Assembly (NCBI RefSeq): GCF_017352135.1
Contig: NZ_CP071454.1
Coordinates: 3,745,001 to 3,809,000 of the forward strand
Direction: 5' to 3'
Length of the DNA stretch: 64,000 bases
Source of the DNA: Rhizobium lentis
Lineage (GTDB): Bacteria > Pseudomonadota > Alphaproteobacteria > Rhizobiales > Rhizobiaceae
The translations under genes and the position numbers were made by a program. Numbering within the stretch: the first letter of the stretch is position 1; each line of letters starts with the position of its first letter. This document shows positions 2,076 through 37,732 of the stretch, piece after piece. The notes beneath the pieces are model-generated. The model was not told the DNA's origin, ran no database searches, and saw nothing but the letters and a program-made list of their open reading frames with translations.

Positions 2076-4919
2076 ATGCTTGACAAGACCTATGATTCCG
2101 CCGCCGTCGAACCAAAAATCGCCGCGAAATGGGATGAGGCGGACGCCTTCCGCGCCGGCGCGAACGCCAGGCCGGGGGCCGAGACCTTCACCATCGTGAT
2201 CCCGCCTCCGAATGTCACCGGCTCGCTGCACATGGGGCACGCGCTGAACAATACGCTGCAGGACATCCTGGTGCGCTTCGAGCGCATGCGCGGCAAGGAC
2301 GTGCTCTGGCAGCCGGGCATGGATCACGCCGGCATCGCCACGCAGATGGTCGTCGAGCGCAAGCTGATGGAGCAGCAGCTGCCCGGCCGCCGCGACATGG
2401 GCCGTGACGCCTTCATCGACAAAATCTGGGAGTGGAAGGCAGAATCGGGGGGATTGATCTTCAATCAGCTGAAGCGCCTCGGCGCTTCATGCGATTGGTC
2501 GCGTGAACGCTTCACCATGGACGAAGGCCTGTCGGAGGCGGTTCTCGAAGTCTTCGTCACGCTCTACAAGGAAGGGCTGATCTACAAGGACAAGCGCCTC
2601 GTCAACTGGGATCCGAAACTCTTGACGGCGATCTCCGACCTTGAAGTCGAACAGCATGAAATCAAGGGCAATCTCTGGCATCTCCGTTATCCGCTGGAGC
2701 CGGGTGTAACCTATCAGTATCCGATCGCTTTCGACGAGGAAGGCAAGCCGACCGAATGGGAAACGCGCGACTATCTGGTCGTTGCCACCACCCGTCCGGA
2801 AACGATGCTCGGCGATACAGGTGTTGCCGTCAATGCCGAGGATGAGCGCTACAAGTCGATCATCGGCAAGCATGTAATTCTGCCGATCGTCGGTCGCCGC
2901 ATTCCGATCGTTGCCGACAACTATGCCGATCCGACCGCCGGTACCGGTGCCGTCAAGGTCACGCCTGCGCATGACTTCAATGACTTCGACGTCGGCAAGC
3001 GGGCCGGTCTGCGCGCGATCAACATCATGAATATCGACGGCACGATTGCCATCAAGGACAATGAGGATTTCCTCGAAGGCCTCGATAATCCGGCCGCGTT
3101 GCATGGCGCCTGGGATCGCCTGGAAGGGCAGGATCGGTTTTATGCACGCAAGGTCATCGTCGAGATTTTCGAAGAGGCGGGCCTCCTCGACAAAATCGAA
3201 CCGCATAAGCACATGGTCCCGCACGGCGACCGTGGCGGCGTGCCGATCGAGCCGCGGCTGACTGAACAGTGGTATGTCGATGCCAAGACGCTCGCCGAAC
3301 CGGCGATCGCCTCGGTCCGCGAAGGGCGCACCAGGATGGTGCCGAAGAGCTGGGACAAGACCTATTACGAATGGATGGAAAATATCCAGCCTTGGTGCGT
3401 CTCCCGCCAGCTCTGGTGGGGACATCAGATCCCCGCCTGGTATGGGCCGGACGGCCAGGTTTTCGTCGAAAAGACCGAAGAAGAGGCGCTGCAGGCGGCG
3501 ATCCAGCATTACCTCTCGCATGAGGGGCCGATGAAGGCCTATGTCGAGGACCTGCTCGAAAACTTCAAGCCGGGTGAGATCCTGACGCGGGACGAGGATG
3601 TGCTCGACACATGGTTCTCCTCGGCGCTTTGGCCCTTCTCGACTCTTGGCTGGCCGGAGAAGACGCCGGAGCTTGCGCGTTATTACCCGACCAACGTGCT
3701 CGTCACCGGCTTCGACATCATCTTCTTCTGGGTCGCCCGCATGATGATGATGGGCCTGCATTTCATGAAGGACGATGATGGCGAACCCGTCGAACCGTTC
3801 CAGACGGTTTATGTCCATGCGCTGGTGCGCGACAAGAACGGGCAGAAGATGTCGAAGTCGAAGGGCAACGTCATCGACCCCCTGGAACTGATCGACGAAT
3901 ACGGTGCCGATGCGCTGCGGTTCACCCTGGCAATCATGGCGGCGCAAGGCCGTGACGTGAAGCTCGATCCGGCCCGCATTGCCGGCTACCGCAATTTCGG
4001 CACCAAGCTCTGGAACGCTACTCGCTTTGCCGAGATGAACGGGGCAAAGAGCGACCCGCATTTCGTGCCGGAGGCCGCCGAGCTCACTATCAACCGCTGG
4101 ATCCTCACGGAACTTGCCCGTACGGAACGTGACGTTACGGAAGCGCTCGAAGCCTTCCGCTTCAACGATGCCGCCGGCGCACTTTATCGCTTCGTCTGGA
4201 ACGAAGTCTGCGACTGGTATCTCGAGCTCCTGAAGCCGGTCTTCAACGGTGAGGACGAGGGTGCAAAAGCCGAAGCCCAGTCTTGCAGCGCCTATATTCT
4301 CGAAGAGATCTATAAGCTGCTGCATCCCTTCATGCCCTTCATGACAGAAGAGCTCTGGGCGCATACCGCAGGCGAGGGCAGGGAGCGCGACACGCTGGTC
4401 TGCCATGCCGAATGGCCGTCGCCGTCCTATGCCGATGACGGCGCCGCCGACGAGATCAACTGGTTGATCGACCTCGTTTCCGGCATCCGTTCGGTCCGGG
4501 CCGAGATGAACGTACCGCCGTCGGCGACAGCCCCGCTCGTCGTCGTGAAGGCCAACAATCTGACGCGCGAACGGCTGTTCCGCCACGATGCTGCGATCAA
4601 GCGGCTCGCTCGCGTCGAGGCGATATCGCTGGCAGACGATGCGCCGAAGGGGGCGGCGCAGATCGTCGTCGCCGAGGCCACCATCTGCCTTCCGCTCGGC
4701 AATCTGATCGACCTTTCCGCCGAAAAAGCCCGCCTCGAAAAGGCGATTGCCAAGATGGAAGGAGAAATCGCCCGCATCAACGGCAAGCTCTCCAACGAAA
4801 AGTTCGTCGCCAACGCCAATCCCGAGGTGGTCGAGGCCGAGCGCGAGCGCCTTGAGGAGCTGGAGGGGCAGATCGCAAGCTTGAGGACGGCCCTCTCTCG
4901 GGTCAGCGAAGCCGGGTAA
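2076..4919 (+). CDS. valS: Valyl-tRNA synthetase
   Basis: A 947-residue class I aminoacyl-tRNA synthetase that charges tRNA-Val. The HIGH motif appears as HMGH (residues 52-55) after PPPNVTGS, and KMSKS is at 591-595. The editing (CP1) domain lies between them with [15 protein letters not shown]. The C-terminus carries the ValS coiled-coil arm (about 880-940, [19 protein letters not shown]). The length is normal for the family. ATG 2076 gives the family N-terminus [22 protein letters not shown] terminator follows 28 bases after the stop. Confidence 0.98.
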
Positions 4920-31103: not shown

Positions 31104-32549
31104 TCAAAGTGTTCCTCGGGCACTTTCGGCAAACACCCGTGTCTGGCCGAGCCAGGCGGCGCAGTCCGCAAGCGCGCGCCGGGCGATCAACTGCCGTTTC
31201 ATGATCGTCTTGTCCTTGCCACGAAAGCGCTTGACCCCCTCGGGCTTGACGATCGAACCGGGCTCAAGCTCCGGGAACAGCCCGAAATTGATGTTCATCG
31301 GCTGGAACGACCGTTTGCCGGGCTCCTCGTCAGTGACGATGTGCCCGCCTGTGATATGACCGAGCAGCGAACCGAGCGCCGTCGTAGTCGGCGGCAGCGA
31401 GATCGCTTCGCCCTTGCGTTCGGCGGCGGCGAAACGCCCCGCGAGCAGCCCGACGCTGGCGCTTTCCACATAGCCCTCGCAGCCGGTGATCTGCCCGGCG
31501 AAACGCAGGCCGGCCCGGGATTTCAGCGTCAGCGATCGATCGAGCAGGGTGGGAGAATTGATGTAGGTGTTGCGGTGCAGGCCGCCGAGGCGGGCAAATT
31601 CCGCATTTTCCAGACCCGGGATCATCCGGAAGATTTCTGCCTGCGCACCATATTTCAGCTTCGTCTGGAAGCCGACCATATTGTAGAGCGTGCCGAGCGC
31701 GTTGTCCTGCCGCAGTTGCACGACGGCATAGGCTTTGACCGTCGGGTTATGCGCGTTCGTCAGCCCCATCGGCTTCATCGGCCCGTGGCGCAGCGTCTCG
31801 CGGCCGCGTTCGGCCATGACCTCGATCGGCAGGCAGCCATCGAAATAGGGCGTGCCTTCCCATTCCTTGAAACCGACCGTGTCACCTGCGATCAGCGCGT
31901 CGACGAAGGCATTGTACTGGGCCTCGTCCATCGGGCAATTGATGTAGTCCTTGCCGGTGCCGCCGGGACCGACCTTGTCATAGCGCGACTGGTACCAACA
32001 GATATCCATGTCGATGCTCTCGCGATAGACGATGGGCGCGATGGCGTCGAAGAACGCGAGCGAATCCTCACCGGTCTCCGCCTGGATCGCAGTTGCGAGC
32101 GACGGCGCCGTCAACGGTCCCGTGGCGACGATGGCAAGATCCCAGTCGCTTGGCGGCAGGCCGGTGATCTCTTCACGCACGACGGTGATGAGCGGATGGT
32201 CGTGGATGGCGTGGGTCACGGCATCCGAGAAACCGTCGCGATCGACGGCGAGCGCGCCGCCTGCAGGCACCTGGTGACGGTCGGCAGCGGCCATGATCAG
32301 CGAGCCTGCCATGCGCATTTCCGCGTGGATGACCCCGACGGCATTGCTGGTCGCATCGTCGGACCGGAAGGAATTGGAGCAGACGAGTTCGGCAAGTCCC
32401 TCGGTCTTGTGGGCATCCGTACCGCGCACGCCGCGCATTTCATGCAGAATGACGGGAACGCCCGCGCTGGCGATCTGCCAGGCGGCTTCCGAGCCGGCAA
32501 GCCCGCCGCCTACCACGTGAATGGGGGAATAGGAGGAGATGGTGTTCAT
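31104..32549 (-). CDS. trmFO: Folate-dependent tRNA (uracil-54-C5)-methyltransferase TrmFO
   Basis: A 481-residue flavoprotein that makes ribothymidine at position 54 of tRNAs using methylenetetrahydrofolate and FADH2. The FAD-binding [11 protein letters not shown] is near residue 14, and the catalytic cysteine lies in [10 protein letters not shown] (C57), with a second conserved Cys in [22 protein letters not shown] and [10 protein letters not shown] are typical family motifs. It is convergent with the small membrane protein, 16 bases from its stop. The ribosome binding site is weak. Confidence 0.95.
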
Positions 32550-32595: not shown

Positions 32596-32619
32596 AAAAA
32601 CGGCGCCCTGAGGCGCCGT
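32596..32619 (-). terminator. Intrinsic terminator after first DUF1127 gene
   Basis: On the minus strand a perfect 8-bp stem (ACGGCGCC / GGCGCCGT) with a 4-base loop is followed by TTTTT. It closes the DUF1127 gene at 32652-32795 before trmFO. Confidence 0.85.
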
Positions 32620-32651
32620 CTTGAAGCATCGTTCGCGTGATCGGTCCGCGA

Positions 32652-32795
32652 TTAGCGGAACGAGCGGGATGCGATGTTGCGGATGTCGTAACGGCTGACG
32701 CCGATGTCGGACAGGGTCTGGTTGGAAAGGCTGCCGAGTTCATTGAGCGTACGGCGGTAGCTGATCCAGCTTTTTGCAATGCGAATTGGGTTCAT
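32652..32795 (-). CDS. DUF1127 (YjiS-like) small protein A
   Basis: A 47-residue, strongly basic protein: it begins MNPIRIAKSWISYRRTLNEL and contains LSDIGVSRYDIRNIA, the Arg-rich DUF1127 core. Members are abundant in rhizobia and related bacteria; some bind RNA or a sensor kinase and influence stress or phosphate responses. Start at the ATG complementary to 32793-32795, with GAGGAAAAAG upstream. It has its own promoter candidate (32896-32925) and terminator, so it is a single-gene unit with a leader of roughly 90 bases. A paralogue sits 300 bases upstream on the same strand. Confidence 0.92.
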   Translation of the reverse strand: MNPIRIAKSWISYRRTLNELGSLSNQTLSDIGVSRYDIRNIASRSFR

Positions 32796-32895
32796 TGTCT
32801 TTTTCCTCGAACAAATGTCCGCGGGACGGCGGGATCGCCTGTCTCTTTGCGGTTGATGTTTATATAGGCGAAGGCGGCCCCATTGTGCAGTGCAA

Positions 32896-32925
32896 ATTAA
32901 AGGCGTCTGCCATGCAAATGTGCAA
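32896..32925 (-). promoter_or_regulatory. Candidate promoter for DUF1127 protein A
   Basis: On the minus strand TTGCAC (32925-32920) and TTTAAT (32901-32896) are separated by 18 bases. The element TTGCACTGCA also occurs just downstream (32895-32886) and again upstream of the sRNA (33898-33909). Confidence 0.4.
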
Positions 32926-33016
32926 TACGATGCTTGGAAATTGAGCGGTGAATATTTTTTGAGCGGAGTTGAGAGAGCTGAAACGATCGCAACCGGAGCG
33001 TCGGCGAATTGCCGGC

Positions 33017-33048
33017 AAAAGAAAACGCCCGCTGTTGTGCAGCGGGCG
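33017..33048 (-). terminator. Intrinsic terminator after second DUF1127 gene
   Basis: On the minus strand a perfect 9-bp stem (CGCCCGCTG / CAGCGGGCG) with a 5-base loop precedes TTTTCTTTT. Confidence 0.9.
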
Positions 33049-33094
33049 CTCAGTCACGGACGGATCTGCTTGGGAGGAAGCAGAGGCCGTTGAA

Positions 33095-33241
33095 TTAGCG
33101 AGAAGAAGCTTCGCGAGCAACGCGATGGATGTCCGAACGGTCGATGCCGAGGTCATGCAATTCGCGGTTGGTCATACGGCCAAGTTCCGTAACGGTCTGA
33201 CGATACTTGCGCCAGTTGTTGAAAGAGCGAGTGATGTTCAT
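33095..33241 (-). CDS. DUF1127 (YjiS-like) small protein B
   Basis: A 48-residue basic protein, MNITRSFNNWRKYRQTVTEL..., with the DUF1127 core NRELHDLGIDRSDIHRVAREA. It aligns along its whole length with protein A (shared YRxTxxELG, LxDxGxxRxDI), so the two are likely tandem duplicates. The start at 33241 is preceded by AAAGGGGC; a longer frame to 33355 adds residues foreign to the family. It carries its own terminator at 33017-33048. Confidence 0.92.
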   Translation of the reverse strand: MNITRSFNNWRKYRQTVTELGRMTNRELHDLGIDRSDIHRVAREASSR

Positions 33242-33682
33242 TTTAAGCCCCTTTCTGAGGGTTGATCTGCCAGCAGCCACCAATCGGCGCTGACCTCTAT
33301 TTGATGACCGGAATATATGTTGCGGTGCGAAGAACGAAAACAGACAAGTTTTCAAGTCACCTATGCAAGGTATGCAATGGTTTACACAATCTTACCGCAG
33401 TTTGGTCAACGAATAGGCAAAGTAATCTAGCGGGACTGCGCTTTGGAAGCCCGCGCGGCGGTCGTGATGAGTGAAAAAACTGATTCTCCAGCGGACCGGT
33501 CTACACGACTTCCGCACCGCAGTCGGCAAGCTCTCCATCCATCCTGGCCGTCGACAACTCGATGTGCGGTACCACGGCTTCATACAACGAAGACTTCGGT
33601 TGCTGTCGCTTGCCCAGTCGCGCTGGTCGATCGCTCGATGGCGCGGTAAACCTTTGAATTTAAACATCCTAGCGACGGTAAA
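33242..33682. other. Intergenic region between DUF1127 B and the sRNA; no gene seen
   Basis: About 440 bases. The left part, AT-rich, should hold the promoter of DUF1127 protein B. Open frames on both strands here have no supported start or family features. Confidence 0.45.
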
Positions 33683-33797
33683 TAAAACGCCCGCCGGGGG
33701 AGGATCCGGCGGGCGCATTATATTGACTGGCAACTGGGAGGAGGAGTGTTGCCAGTCTATCGCAACGCGCTTGGGAGGAGGAGTGCGCGGCTGCGAA
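33683..33797 (-). ncRNA. Alpha-r14 family sRNA (Smr14C/NfeR1-like)
   Basis: On the minus strand three hairpins lie in a row. Hairpin 1 (33795-33761) and hairpin 2 (33757-33725, a perfect 10-bp stem GACTGGCAAC/GTTGCCAGTC) each expose the same loop ACTCCTCCTCCCA. Hairpin 3 (33715-33688, stem CGCCCGCCGG/CCGGCGGGCG) ends in a T-rich tail and is the terminator. Two exposed CUCCUCCC anti-Shine-Dalgarno loops plus a terminator are the hallmark of alphaproteobacterial alpha-r14 RNAs, trans-acting regulators that pair with ribosome binding sites of many mRNAs. The 5' end is uncertain: about 33797 if the RNA has the usual length, or up to about 33868 if the promoter candidate there is used. Confidence 0.85.
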
Positions 33798-33875
33798 TCT
33801 CGTCACGAACAAAGCGTCCGCGGGCGTCCGGAGAACCGGGCCAGGGTGCCATCCCCGTGCTTCGATGCATCGTAA

Positions 33876-33909
33876 ATAGTATGACTAATTGATATTTTGC
33901 AGTGCAATA
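33876..33909 (-). promoter_or_regulatory. Candidate promoter upstream of the sRNA
   Basis: On the minus strand TTGCAC followed about 18 bases later by CATACT, in an AT-rich segment. It shares the TTGCACTGCA element with the DUF1127 A upstream region. It would give a transcript about 70 bases longer than a typical alpha-r14 RNA, so another start is possible. Confidence 0.25.
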
Positions 33910-34123
33910 AATACATGAGGGGTATGCGAAAAGCGCATGTCTCTTCTCTTATAGCCTCATAATAGCAGCTCCGACGTTAGCGACCGGTTAATGCCTGACC
34001 CAAATTAGACCAATGAGGAATTTGCATATTTGCTGCTGGGGCGTTTGCGAAGCCGCTCGCTGAGGCTATAACGAGCGAAGCCGTAGCGCCGCAGCGAGCG
34101 TCACGGAAACGAGGGGTGGAAGC

Positions 34124-36244: not shown

Positions 36245-37732
36245 ATGCAGGTTATCGAAACGCTCGCTGAAGGGCTGAAGCGCGAAATCAAGGTCGTTAT
36301 CCCGGCCAAGGACATGGAAGACAAGATGAATGAGCGTCTTGCCGATGTGAAGGACAAGATCCGCATCAACGGCTTCCGTCCGGGCAAGGTCCCCGCTGCT
36401 CACCTGAAGAAGGTTTACGGCAAGTCGATCATGGCCGATCTCGTCAACGAGATCGTCCGCGAGCAGCCCGCCGCTATCCTGTCCAGCCGCGGCGAGAAGT
36501 CGGCCACGCAGCCGGAAATCGCCATGACTGAGGACAAGGACGAGGCCGACAAGATCCTCACCGCCCAGCAGGATTTCGAATTCACGCTGTCCTACGAAGT
36601 GCTGCCGCCGATTGAGCTTAAGTCCGTCAAGGGCATCAAGGTTACGCGCGAAGTCATCGATATCTCGGATGAGGAAGTCAACGAGCAGGTCCTGAAGGTC
36701 GCCGAAAGCGCCCGCTCCTACGAGAGCAAGACCGGCAAGGCCGCAAACGGCGACCGCGTCACCATGGATTATGTCGGCAAGGTTGACGGCGAAGCCTTCG
36801 AAGGCGGCACCGATCAGGGCGCCGAACTGGTGATCGGCTCCGGCCGCTTCATTCCGGGCTTCGAAGACCAGCTCGTTGGCGTCAAGGCTGGCGAAGAGAA
36901 GACCATCACCGTGACCTTCCCGGCCGACTATCCGGCCAAGAATCTTGCCGGCAAGGAAGCGACCTTCGACATCACGGTCAAGGACGTCGCAGCTCCGGGC
37001 GCTGTCGAAATCAACGACCAGCTCGCCTCCAAGCTCGGCATCGAATCTGCCGATCGCCTGAAGGAGATCGTCCGTGGCCAGATCGAATCGCAGTACGGCT
37101 CGCTGACCCGCCAGAAGCTGAAGCGTCAGATCCTCGATCAGCTCGATGAGATGTACAAGTTCGATACCCCGGCTTCGCTCGTCGACGCCGAGTACAACGG
37201 CATCTGGAGCCAGGTGAACAACGATCTCGCCCAGTCCGGTAAGACCTTCGAAGACGAAGACACGACCGAAGAGAAGGCACGTGAGGAATACAAGACGCTT
37301 GCCGAGCGTCGCGTCCGCCTCGGCCTCGTTCTCTCCGAGATCGGCGAAAAGGCCGGCGTCGAAGTCACCGAAGACGAAATGCAGCGGGCTATCTACGATC
37401 AGCTGCGCCAGTATCCGGGCCAGGAAAAGCAGATCCTCGAATTCTTCCGCAGCCAGCCGGGTGCCGCCGCTTCGATCCGCGCGCCGATCTTCGAAGAGAA
37501 GGTCATCGATCACCTGCTGACGGAAATCGACGTTACGGACAAGAAAGTGACGAAGGAAGAACTGCTCGCCGAGGAAGAAGGCGAAGCCAAGGCTGAAACC
37601 AAGAAGGCCGCGCCGAAGAAGAAGGCCGCCGCCAAGGCCGATGCTGCCGAGGCCGGTGAAGGCGAGGAAGCCGCCGCTCCGAAGAAAAAGGCTGCTTCGA
37701 AGAAGAAGGCTTCCGAGGACAGCGCCGAATAA
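36245..37732 (+). CDS. tig: Trigger factor (ribosome-associated chaperone)
   Basis: A 495-residue chaperone that docks at the ribosome exit tunnel and folds nascent proteins. The ribosome-binding signature GFRPGKVP is at 43-50. The FKBP-type prolyl isomerase domain lies at about 170-255 ([35 protein letters not shown]), followed by the C-terminal chaperone domain. The last 50 residues are a Lys/Ala/Glu-rich tail with PKKKAA repeats, longer than in E. coli and usual in rhizobia. ATG 36245 follows GGTAGGAAG. A terminator follows. Confidence 0.97.

What the first reader, a model, noticed from the sequence alone, without database searches (positions are those of the whole stretch)
32596..33909. 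Two single-gene DUF1127 units next to an alpha-r14 sRNA, sharing a promoter element
Within 1.3 kb on one strand lie an anti-Shine-Dalgarno sRNA and two paralogous 47-48 residue DUF1127 proteins, each with its own intrinsic terminator. The sRNA and DUF1127 A upstream regions share TTGCACTGCA. Some DUF1127 proteins (such as CcaF1 in Rhodobacter) bind RNA, so a protein-RNA regulatory module is possible. The clustering itself is what I see; the functional link is inference.
Basis: partly seen in the sequence, partly recalled or inferred. Interest (0 to 1): 0.7.

Follow-up and report, generated by a model that had tools for sequence, protein, structure and literature searches.

The report
Shared-promoter sRNA and DUF1127 locus
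A soil bacterium of the Rhizobium group keeps a regulatory small RNA and two tiny proteins side by side, a known pairing, and their promoters carry what look like binding sites for a redox-sensing activator and a carbon-store-sensing repressor, suggesting that they are switched together when carbon stores and stress change.

Summary
On the minus strand lie an ar14 sRNA (RF02344, 109 bits; NfeR1 family), a 48-aa DUF1127 gene (B) and a 47-aa DUF1127 gene (A), each with a terminator. TTGCACTGCA occurs exactly twice in 64 kb, upstream of the sRNA and of A. Such sRNA-DUF1127 neighbourhoods are already described ("CIN1 locus", cuckoo RNA). This one looks like the positional counterpart of S. meliloti nfeR1-SMc02051, near tig, with trmFO on the other side. 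New here: the decamer is best read as an operator of PhaR/AniA, the repressor that senses polyhydroxybutyrate. A matrix of published S. meliloti PhaR sites ranks the two copies 1st and 2nd of 63,980 window positions; a weaker site precedes B (6th). A second element fits the box of the redox activator LsrB/VtlR: complete before B, half before the sRNA, spacer one base short before A. In this genome 6 of 13 complete LsrB boxes precede ar14, AbcR or DUF1127 genes; seven were not assigned. Best reading: LsrB-activated, PhaR-repressed co-expression of an anti-Shine-Dalgarno sRNA and small proteins of the PhoR-binding kind. Binding is inferred, not shown. A physical protein-RNA partnership is untested.

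The parts
33682..33801 (-). ar14 (NfeR1-family) sRNA, three hairpins with anti-Shine-Dalgarno loops (third loop shortened)
   Evidence: RF02344 109 bits; both-side pair changes in the stems of 30 aligned sequences, window included; loops
33802..33868 (-). probable 5' leader of the sRNA (start of transcription predicted by eye, not mapped)
   Evidence: aligned in 30 sequences, window included; a consensus hairpin has both-side changes at 5 of 7 pairs but is broken in some rows at 6 of 7, and the minimum-energy fold of the window alone forms another hairpin; open frames in it are not conserved
33876..33881 (-). putative -10 TACTAT of the sRNA
   Evidence: conserved CATACTAT in most rows of the alignment; assigned by eye; position
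33892..33912 (-).
   Evidence: rank 1 of 63,980 positions, 24.1 bits; exact match to the S. meliloti 21-mer
33924..33937 (-). LsrB-type half box TGCGCTTTTCGCAT (TGCR-N6-GCAT) of the sRNA
   Evidence: half box in 37 of 52 relatives
33687..33716 (-). terminator of the sRNA, its third hairpin
33098..33241 (-). DUF1127 B, 48 aa
   Evidence: PF06568 59.3 bits
33312..33317 (-). putative -10 TATATT of B
   Evidence: conserved ATATATT in many rows of the alignment; assigned by eye; position
33315..33335 (-). weaker PhaR-type site of B
   Evidence: 12.5 bits, rank 6 of 63,980; PhaR core somewhere in the 190 nt upstream in 54 of 54 relatives that also have A, 57 of 80 in all
33354..33376 (-). complete LsrB/VtlR-type box of B, TGCATACCTTGCATAGGTGACTT
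   Evidence: one of 13 exact places in the genome, 0 in the reversed-pattern control; complete box in 70 of 80 relatives
33023..33051 (-). terminator of B
32655..32795 (-). DUF1127 A, 47 aa
   Evidence: PF06568 50.2 bits
32861..32866 (-). putative -10 TATATA of A
   Evidence: CTATATA conserved in most rows of the alignment; assigned by eye; position
32880..32900 (-). PhaR/AniA-type operator of A, TTAATTTGCACTGCACAATGG
   Evidence: rank 2 of 63,980, 19.4 bits; its 12-mer TGCACTGCACAA also lies inside a listed S. meliloti phaP1 site
32912..32924 (-). LsrB-like element of A with a 5-base spacer, TGCACATTTGCAT
   Evidence: TGCR-N5-GCAT in 54 of 54 relatives, TGCR-N6-GCAT in 0 of 54
32600..32619 (-). 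terminator of A
   Evidence: fold z -4.9; by eye, not listed by the scan
31104..32549 (-). trmFO-type GidA-family gene, conserved neighbour downstream
   Evidence: PF01134 326 bits; synteny; the name trmFO is recalled
36245..37732 (+). tig (trigger factor), conserved neighbour upstream
   Evidence: TIGR00115 423 bits; synteny

Best explanation
The interval is a CIN1-type locus, apparently the positional counterpart of S. meliloti nfeR1-SMc02051, made of three separately transcribed short units: an NfeR1-family anti-Shine-Dalgarno sRNA and two short DUF1127 genes. The three promoters have a similar layout: an LsrB/VtlR-type element (complete in B, half in the sRNA, 5-base spacer in A) beginning 56-59 nt upstream of the putative -10, and a PhaR/AniA-type palindrome between it and the -10 (in B overlapping the -10 by 3 nt). 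Most likely LsrB (redox) activates, and PhaR represses until it is drawn onto polyhydroxybutyrate granules. The sRNA would then silence uptake and ntrBC-type mRNAs, and the small proteins would restrain PhoR, as a joint brake on nutrient uptake when carbon is stored or stress is sensed. Shown here: the genes, the sites, their layout and conservation. Inferred: binding, direction of control, start sites and the physiological output.
For: Genes. PhaR matrix from the 20 published sites of S. meliloti promoters listed as bound 'Efficient': ranks 1, 2 and 6 of 63,980 for sRNA, A and B. Positive control: the two best of three phasin matches of the same genome have sites of 24.0/18.5 and 15.1 bits and no LsrB half box upstream. 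PhaR core in 52/52 sRNA, 54/54 A and 54/54 B promoters (B with A behind it; 57/80 of all B), control stretches 13.4%. Complete LsrB box: 13 places in the genome against 0 for the reversed pattern; 6 of 13 precede ar14 (2), ar15/AbcR (2) or DUF1127 (2). Family-wide sample: PhaR-type site in 23/30 ar14 and 22/30 DUF1127 promoters, control 2.4%; LsrB half box 19/30 and 17/30, control 0.5%. The genome has a LysR gene behind trxB and before two ar15 copies, as lsrB lies (passages), and a PHB_acc_N (PhaR) gene. Published: LsrB activates nfeR1 through TGCA-N6-GCAT (passages); VtlR activates three DUF1127 genes in Brucella (passages) and atu1667 in Agrobacterium (section); SMc02051 protein is PhaR-repressed, log2(phbC phaR/phbC) 1.51 in low phosphate and 4.63 in TY, with two listed sites, binding not evaluated; smrC14 (nfeR1) lies between SMc02051 and tig (passage).
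Against: No binding, start-site or expression data for this strain. The complete LsrB box is missing from the ar14 (0/52) and A (0/54) promoters of the named set; the ar14 half box is in only 37/52, and A's spacer is 5, not 6. I relaxed the published TGCA to TGCR. B's PhaR site is weak (12.5 bits, below three unrelated window positions of 12.6-13.1). Exact 21-mer counts in the whole genome exceed the reversed pattern only modestly (40 places against 25). Two ar14 copies of this genome (L196, L197) have neither an exact PhaR core nor a half box in 250 nt, and the second linked DUF1127 gene (L001) has no exact PhaR core. Promoters of genomes without a detected phaR have fewer PhaR-type sites (7/19 against 37/45, Fisher p 0.0008), but LsrB half boxes drop too (3/19 against 31/45), so this test is confounded by lineage. 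Control stretches came from flanks, mostly coding and less AT-rich than promoters. That SMc02051 is a DUF1127 gene is inferred from position; no call read its sequence.
Confidence: 0.68

Rival explanations
1. TTGCACTGCA is not a PhaR operator but the second (activation) half-site of LsrB itself, so one regulator explains both elements.
For: The palindrome starts 24-25 nt from the start of the LsrB-type element before the sRNA and A, in the range usual between recognition and activation sites of LysR-type regulators (recalled); LsrB boxes and palindromes are scarce together in genomes without a detected phaR.
Against: The distance is not fixed: start to start 25 (sRNA), 24 (A), 41 (B), 11 (L018), -11 (L038 type). 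The same palindrome precedes phasin genes that have no LsrB half box upstream. The matrix came from PhaR-bound promoters only.
Confidence: 0.15
2. A protein-RNA module: the DUF1127 proteins bind and help process the neighbouring sRNA, as CcaF1 does for CcsR1-4. This could be true together with shared promoter control.
For: Conserved neighbourhood; CcaF1 precedent (section and passages); a predicted leader that could be processed.
Against: Separate promoter elements and terminators here, not one operon; the 47-48-aa proteins of Agrobacterium act through PhoR; 13 of 30 ar14-anchored loci have no DUF1127 within 1.5 kb.
Confidence: 0.2
3. The clustering is only duplication and hitch-hiking in a permissive gap between tig and trmFO, with no common control.
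For: Copy numbers and order vary among genomes.
Against: The cluster lies in the tig-trmFO gap in 15 of 16 fetched stretches (chosen because both genes were seen there), and the promoters keep PhaR cores in 52/52, 54/54 and 54/54.
Confidence: 0.07

Closest known systems
CIN1 locus / cuckoo RNA (Reinkensmeier and Giegerich 2015; paper not held; known here through passages of PMC10253847 and others)
   Same: Short DUF1127 gene beside sRNA with CCUCCUCCC loops
   Different: No structural difference known to me; the PhaR and LsrB reading of the promoters was not met in the passages seen
S. meliloti nfeR1 (smrC14, ar14 family)
   Same: Sequence and fold family; gap next to tig; neighbour SMc02051 where the DUF1127 gene stands here; LsrB-type element
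   Different: Here the promoter seems to start further upstream, giving a predicted leader of about 67 nt; PhaR is not mentioned in the nfeR1 paper PMC10746234 outside its reference list
Short DUF1127 proteins (SDPs) of Agrobacterium tumefaciens
   Same: 47-48 aa, DUF1127
   Different: PhoR binding not tested here
ccaF1-CcsR1-4 of Rhodobacter sphaeroides
   Same: DUF1127 plus sRNAs with CUCCUCC motifs
   Different: One operon from an RpoH promoter with four sRNAs after a 71-aa protein there; three separate units, sRNA first, here
S. meliloti PhaR (AniA) regulon including mmgR
   Same: Same 21-base palindrome; an sRNA (mmgR) already listed as bound
   Different: ar14, AbcR and DUF1127 promoters as targets are predictions here (SMc02051 was predicted in print)

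Membership tests
ar14 / NfeR1 sRNA family (RF02344) | Covariance-model score above gathering, three hairpins with anti-Shine-Dalgarno loops | tested here: met
   109 bits, cut-off 58.8; pair changes in stems; third loop shortened to UCCUCCC
ar14 / NfeR1 sRNA family (RF02344) | Expressed as a discrete transcript that silences mRNAs by anti-Shine-Dalgarno pairing | not testable with these tools
   needs RNA and reporter work
DUF1127 short proteins | PF06568 above cut-off, about 47-48 aa | tested here: met
   59.3 and 50.2 bits, cut-off 23.3
DUF1127 short proteins | Binds PhoR or RNA | not testable with these tools
   no call
CIN1 locus | Short DUF1127 gene next to a CUCCUCC-loop sRNA | tested here: met
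   also in 64 of 80 named loci
LsrB/VtlR regulon | Complete box TGCR-N6-GCAT-N3-TG-N3-T | tested here: inconclusive
   met for B only; half box for the sRNA; 5-base spacer for A
LsrB/VtlR regulon | Regulator gene present | tested here: met
   LysR gene behind trxB and before two ar15 copies; named by position, no lsrB reference sequence was compared
LsrB/VtlR regulon | Binding in vitro or loss of transcript without lsrB | not testable with these tools
   no call
PhaR (AniA) regulon | 21-base palindrome in the promoter | tested here: met
   ranks 1, 2, 6 of 63,980; exact 21-mer only for the sRNA; B weak
PhaR (AniA) regulon | phaR gene present | tested here: met
   PF07879 108.5 bits
PhaR (AniA) regulon | Binding or derepression without phaR | not testable with these tools
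   published for SMc02051 at protein level only
CcaF1-CcsR operon type | DUF1127 and sRNAs in one operon, protein first | tested here: not met
   sRNA first, three terminators, separate promoter elements

The most novel reading that the evidence does not exclude
Across the Rhizobiaceae the anti-Shine-Dalgarno sRNAs (ar14, partly AbcR/ar15) and the short DUF1127 genes form one regulon with two inputs, redox through LsrB and stored carbon through PhaR, in which the two operators often overlap so that the regulators compete. Its output is a combined RNA and protein brake on nitrogen, phosphate and carbon uptake.
Probability: 0.4. Interest if true: 0.65.

Novelty: new member of a known kind. Interest (0 to 1): 0.45.

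Why it matters
It would explain why these sRNAs and small proteins travel together without needing a physical complex, link polyhydroxybutyrate stores to sRNA silencing and phosphate control, and turn an open puzzle (what DUF1127 proteins are for in rhizobia, and why there are several copies) into a test with two gene deletions. The tig-trmFO position gives a landmark for finding the locus in other genomes of the family.

Tried and rejected
A uORF in the sRNA leader, as in the tetracycline-induced duf1127-1 of S. meliloti: frames of 12 aa or more starting with ATG/GTG in the leader differ in frame and length among 32 sequences (window and 31 of the 52 relatives) and are missing in two, so rejected; that S. 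meliloti gene is also of the long DUF1127 type (section).

Sigma-70 scan: no hit at the three promoters, compatible with activator-dependent promoters but not evidence for them.

Weak model hits at 4109-4233 in many named loci (about 22-37 bits) and at window 33020-33095 (23.8 bits) overlap the terminator of B and were not counted as sRNAs; nor was a 24.4-bit hit at L097 6966.

Loss of the PhaR site in genomes without phaR: significant but confounded. The 18 phaR-negative promoters fetched were those listed in the cut table; one more (L058, upstream 220 nt instead of 260) was taken over. The 45 phaR-positive ones were 25 plus 20 of the next ranks, with three rows dropped (one at a contig start, one second identical-scoring copy, one tandem neighbour). 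Two phaR-negative genomes are incomplete or fragmented (G110 68% complete, G031 96% complete in 140 contigs), and they hold the three strongest sites of that group.

The first ar14 alignment had wrong strands for several loci and was discarded; one search replaced it. The last literature search (LsrB with PhaR; 159 papers, 20 listed) was swamped by words beginning with 'phar'; of those listed I judged only PMC11975290 relevant, and it holds no whole-word PhaR or AniA.

Full report
WHAT IS THERE. On the minus strand of 32596-33937 the order is ar14 sRNA (33801-33682), DUF1127 B (33241-33098, 48 aa), DUF1127 A (32795-32655, 47 aa), then a GidA-family gene of the trmFO type. Upstream on the plus strand lie a DUF2157 gene (34124), a tRNA (35958) and tig (36245). 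Each of the three short units ends in a terminator hairpin. TTGCACTGCA occurs twice in the window and nowhere else in it. Among the fetched named loci the closest is Rhizobium aethiopicum, 90% over 6.7 kb.

THE PAIRING IS CONSERVED AND KNOWN. Of 80 named loci fetched with B as query (the 80 best of 333 relatives, so biased to close kin), a home-made ar14 model finds an sRNA (48 bits or more) on the same strand upstream in 52 and downstream in 12; 16 have none, one of them (L129) cut just behind B. A follows B in 54 of 80. In a sample chosen only by ar14 score, 17 of 30 loci have a DUF1127 gene within 1.5 kb, all on the same strand; chosen only by DUF1127 score, 29 of 30 have an ar14 within 1.5 kb, 28 on the same strand (counted by eye; one best locus per genome, two places, of G024 and G025, occur in both samples). 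Of 121 genomes of the family 116 have ar14 at E 0.001 (108 over the cut-off) and 116 have DUF1127. In 15 of 16 stretches taken from other genomes the cluster sits between tig and trmFO, with 1-3 sRNA and 1-3 DUF1127 copies (chosen where both genes had been seen; sRNAs found there by a CTCCTCC proxy). S. meliloti smrC14, later named nfeR1, lies between SMc02051 and tig (passage of PMC2780559; naming in a passage of PMC7143759). [quoted passage not shown]

THE SHARED ELEMENT. The alignment of sRNA promoters from 53 relatives and the window (some distant rows are misaligned) shows a conserved block: ATGCR-N6-GCAT, then TTGCACTGCA or a variant, then CATACTAT. The alignments of B and A show corresponding blocks. 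The Bradyrhizobium PhaR consensus is TGCRNYGCASMA (PMC6201568, passages), and the S. meliloti one is WNWDDNYGCRNYGCRNHHWNW (PMC12542648, section read). A matrix from the 20 sites of promoters listed as bound 'Efficient' places the sRNA site first (24.1 bits) and the A site second (19.4) among 63,980 window positions; the next best is 13.1; the B site is sixth (12.5). The 12-mer of A, TGCACTGCACAA, is inside an S. meliloti phaP1 site. The two best phasin genes of this genome carry the same kind of site. TGCRNYGCASMA occurs 118 times in the genome against 30 for the reversed pattern; the exact 21-mer 40 times against 25.

THE SECOND ELEMENT. LsrB activates nfeR1 through TGCA-N6-GCAT at -72 to -60 (PMC10746234, passages). 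For VtlR, the same regulator, a box GCAT-N3-TG-N3-T was confirmed in B. abortus and hypothesised in Agrobacterium (PMC7486931, sections); the Brucella motif is printed as CAATGCAGCCATGCA (PMC12595884, passage). Joined into one pattern, with TGCA relaxed to TGCR, the two descriptions give 13 places in the genome and none for the reversed pattern. Six of the 13 lie before ar14 (L182, L185), ar15/AbcR (L181, L193) or DUF1127 (L187 = B, L192); the other seven were not assigned. The sRNA of the window has only the first half, and A has a 5-base spacer. From box start to the putative -10 the distances are 56, 59 and 58 nt for sRNA, B and A.

BREADTH AND CONTROLS. Named set (175, 190 and 215 nt upstream of sRNA, B and A): PhaR core 52/52 sRNA, 57/80 B (54/54 of those with A), 54/54 A, control 13.4% of 4000 stretches of 190 nt; LsrB half box 37/52, 71/80, 0/54 (54/54 with spacer 5), control 1.0%; complete box 0/52, 70/80, 0/54, control 0; TTGCACTGCA itself 29/52, 0/80, 47/54, control 0. 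Family sample: PhaR matrix at least 12 bits 23/30 ar14 and 22/30 DUF1127, control 2.4% of 3000; half box 19/30 and 17/30, control 0.5%; complete box 6/30 and 14/30, control 0; half box and PhaR site together 19/30 and 14/30. Control stretches are mostly coding. Of seven ar14 loci without a PhaR-type site, four (L024, L027, L030, L032) follow a DUF1127 gene closely and may share its promoter. Absence of a detected phaR (16 of 121 genomes) goes with fewer sites (7/19 against 37/45), but LsrB half boxes fall as well, so that test does not separate the rivals. The varying distance between the two elements and the phasin promoters without a half box speak for two regulators.

HOW IT MOST LIKELY WORKS. 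LsrB and PhaR would set the level of all three short transcripts: activation by redox state, repression by PhaR until polyhydroxybutyrate titrates it (the latter model is confirmed in S. meliloti, abstract of PMC12542648). In S. meliloti the SMc02051 protein rises without PhaR in a phbC background (log2 1.51 and 4.63). PhaR already controls another sRNA, mmgR, and AniA is a putative AbcR1/2 target (passage of PMC8844928), so a loop is possible. NfeR1 silences ntrBC and some transporter mRNAs; short DUF1127 proteins bind PhoR, and without them phosphate uptake rises (abstract). A brake on uptake under carbon excess or stress is therefore a reasonable output, but it is inference.

LIMITS. Starts of transcription, binding and expression are not measured. 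That SMc02051 is a DUF1127 gene rests on position. The leader of the sRNA is predicted; its consensus hairpin is not in the minimum-energy fold of the window sequence alone. PMC12542648 holds no NfeR1, DUF1127, LsrB or AbcR in its main text, and PMC10746234 names PhaR/AniA only in its references; searches run for such a link: in the open-access library only, listings capped.

Noticed in passing
L202 1483-3811 (own genome, C1): trxB, a LysR gene (presumed lsrB) and two ar15/AbcR sRNAs lie in a row; the first AbcR has a complete LsrB box, and a PhaR-type site of 20.0 bits lies between the two (L181 1704-1724).
   Followed up: partly
L193 1341-1523 (own genome, C5): A third ar15/AbcR copy on a smaller contig with an LsrB box overlapping a PhaR-type site of 21.3 bits.
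   Followed up: partly
window 33802-33868 (-): The sRNA seems to carry a leader of about 67 nt, unlike the L018 and L194 copies, whose half box starts 66 nt from the model start.
   Followed up: partly
L001 1501-1971 (own genome, C3): A second DUF1127-ar14 pair in the same genome, protein first, with a complete LsrB box before the DUF1127 gene but no exact PhaR core there.
   Followed up: partly
L218, L219, L220: In more distant genomes the order in the tig-trmFO gap is reversed (DUF1127 first), with up to three sRNAs in tandem (tandems of L038 and L059).
   Followed up: no
L198 1615-1635: A sub-threshold ar14-like sRNA (52.5 bits) on C5 with a PhaR-type site of 20.7 bits upstream.
   Followed up: no
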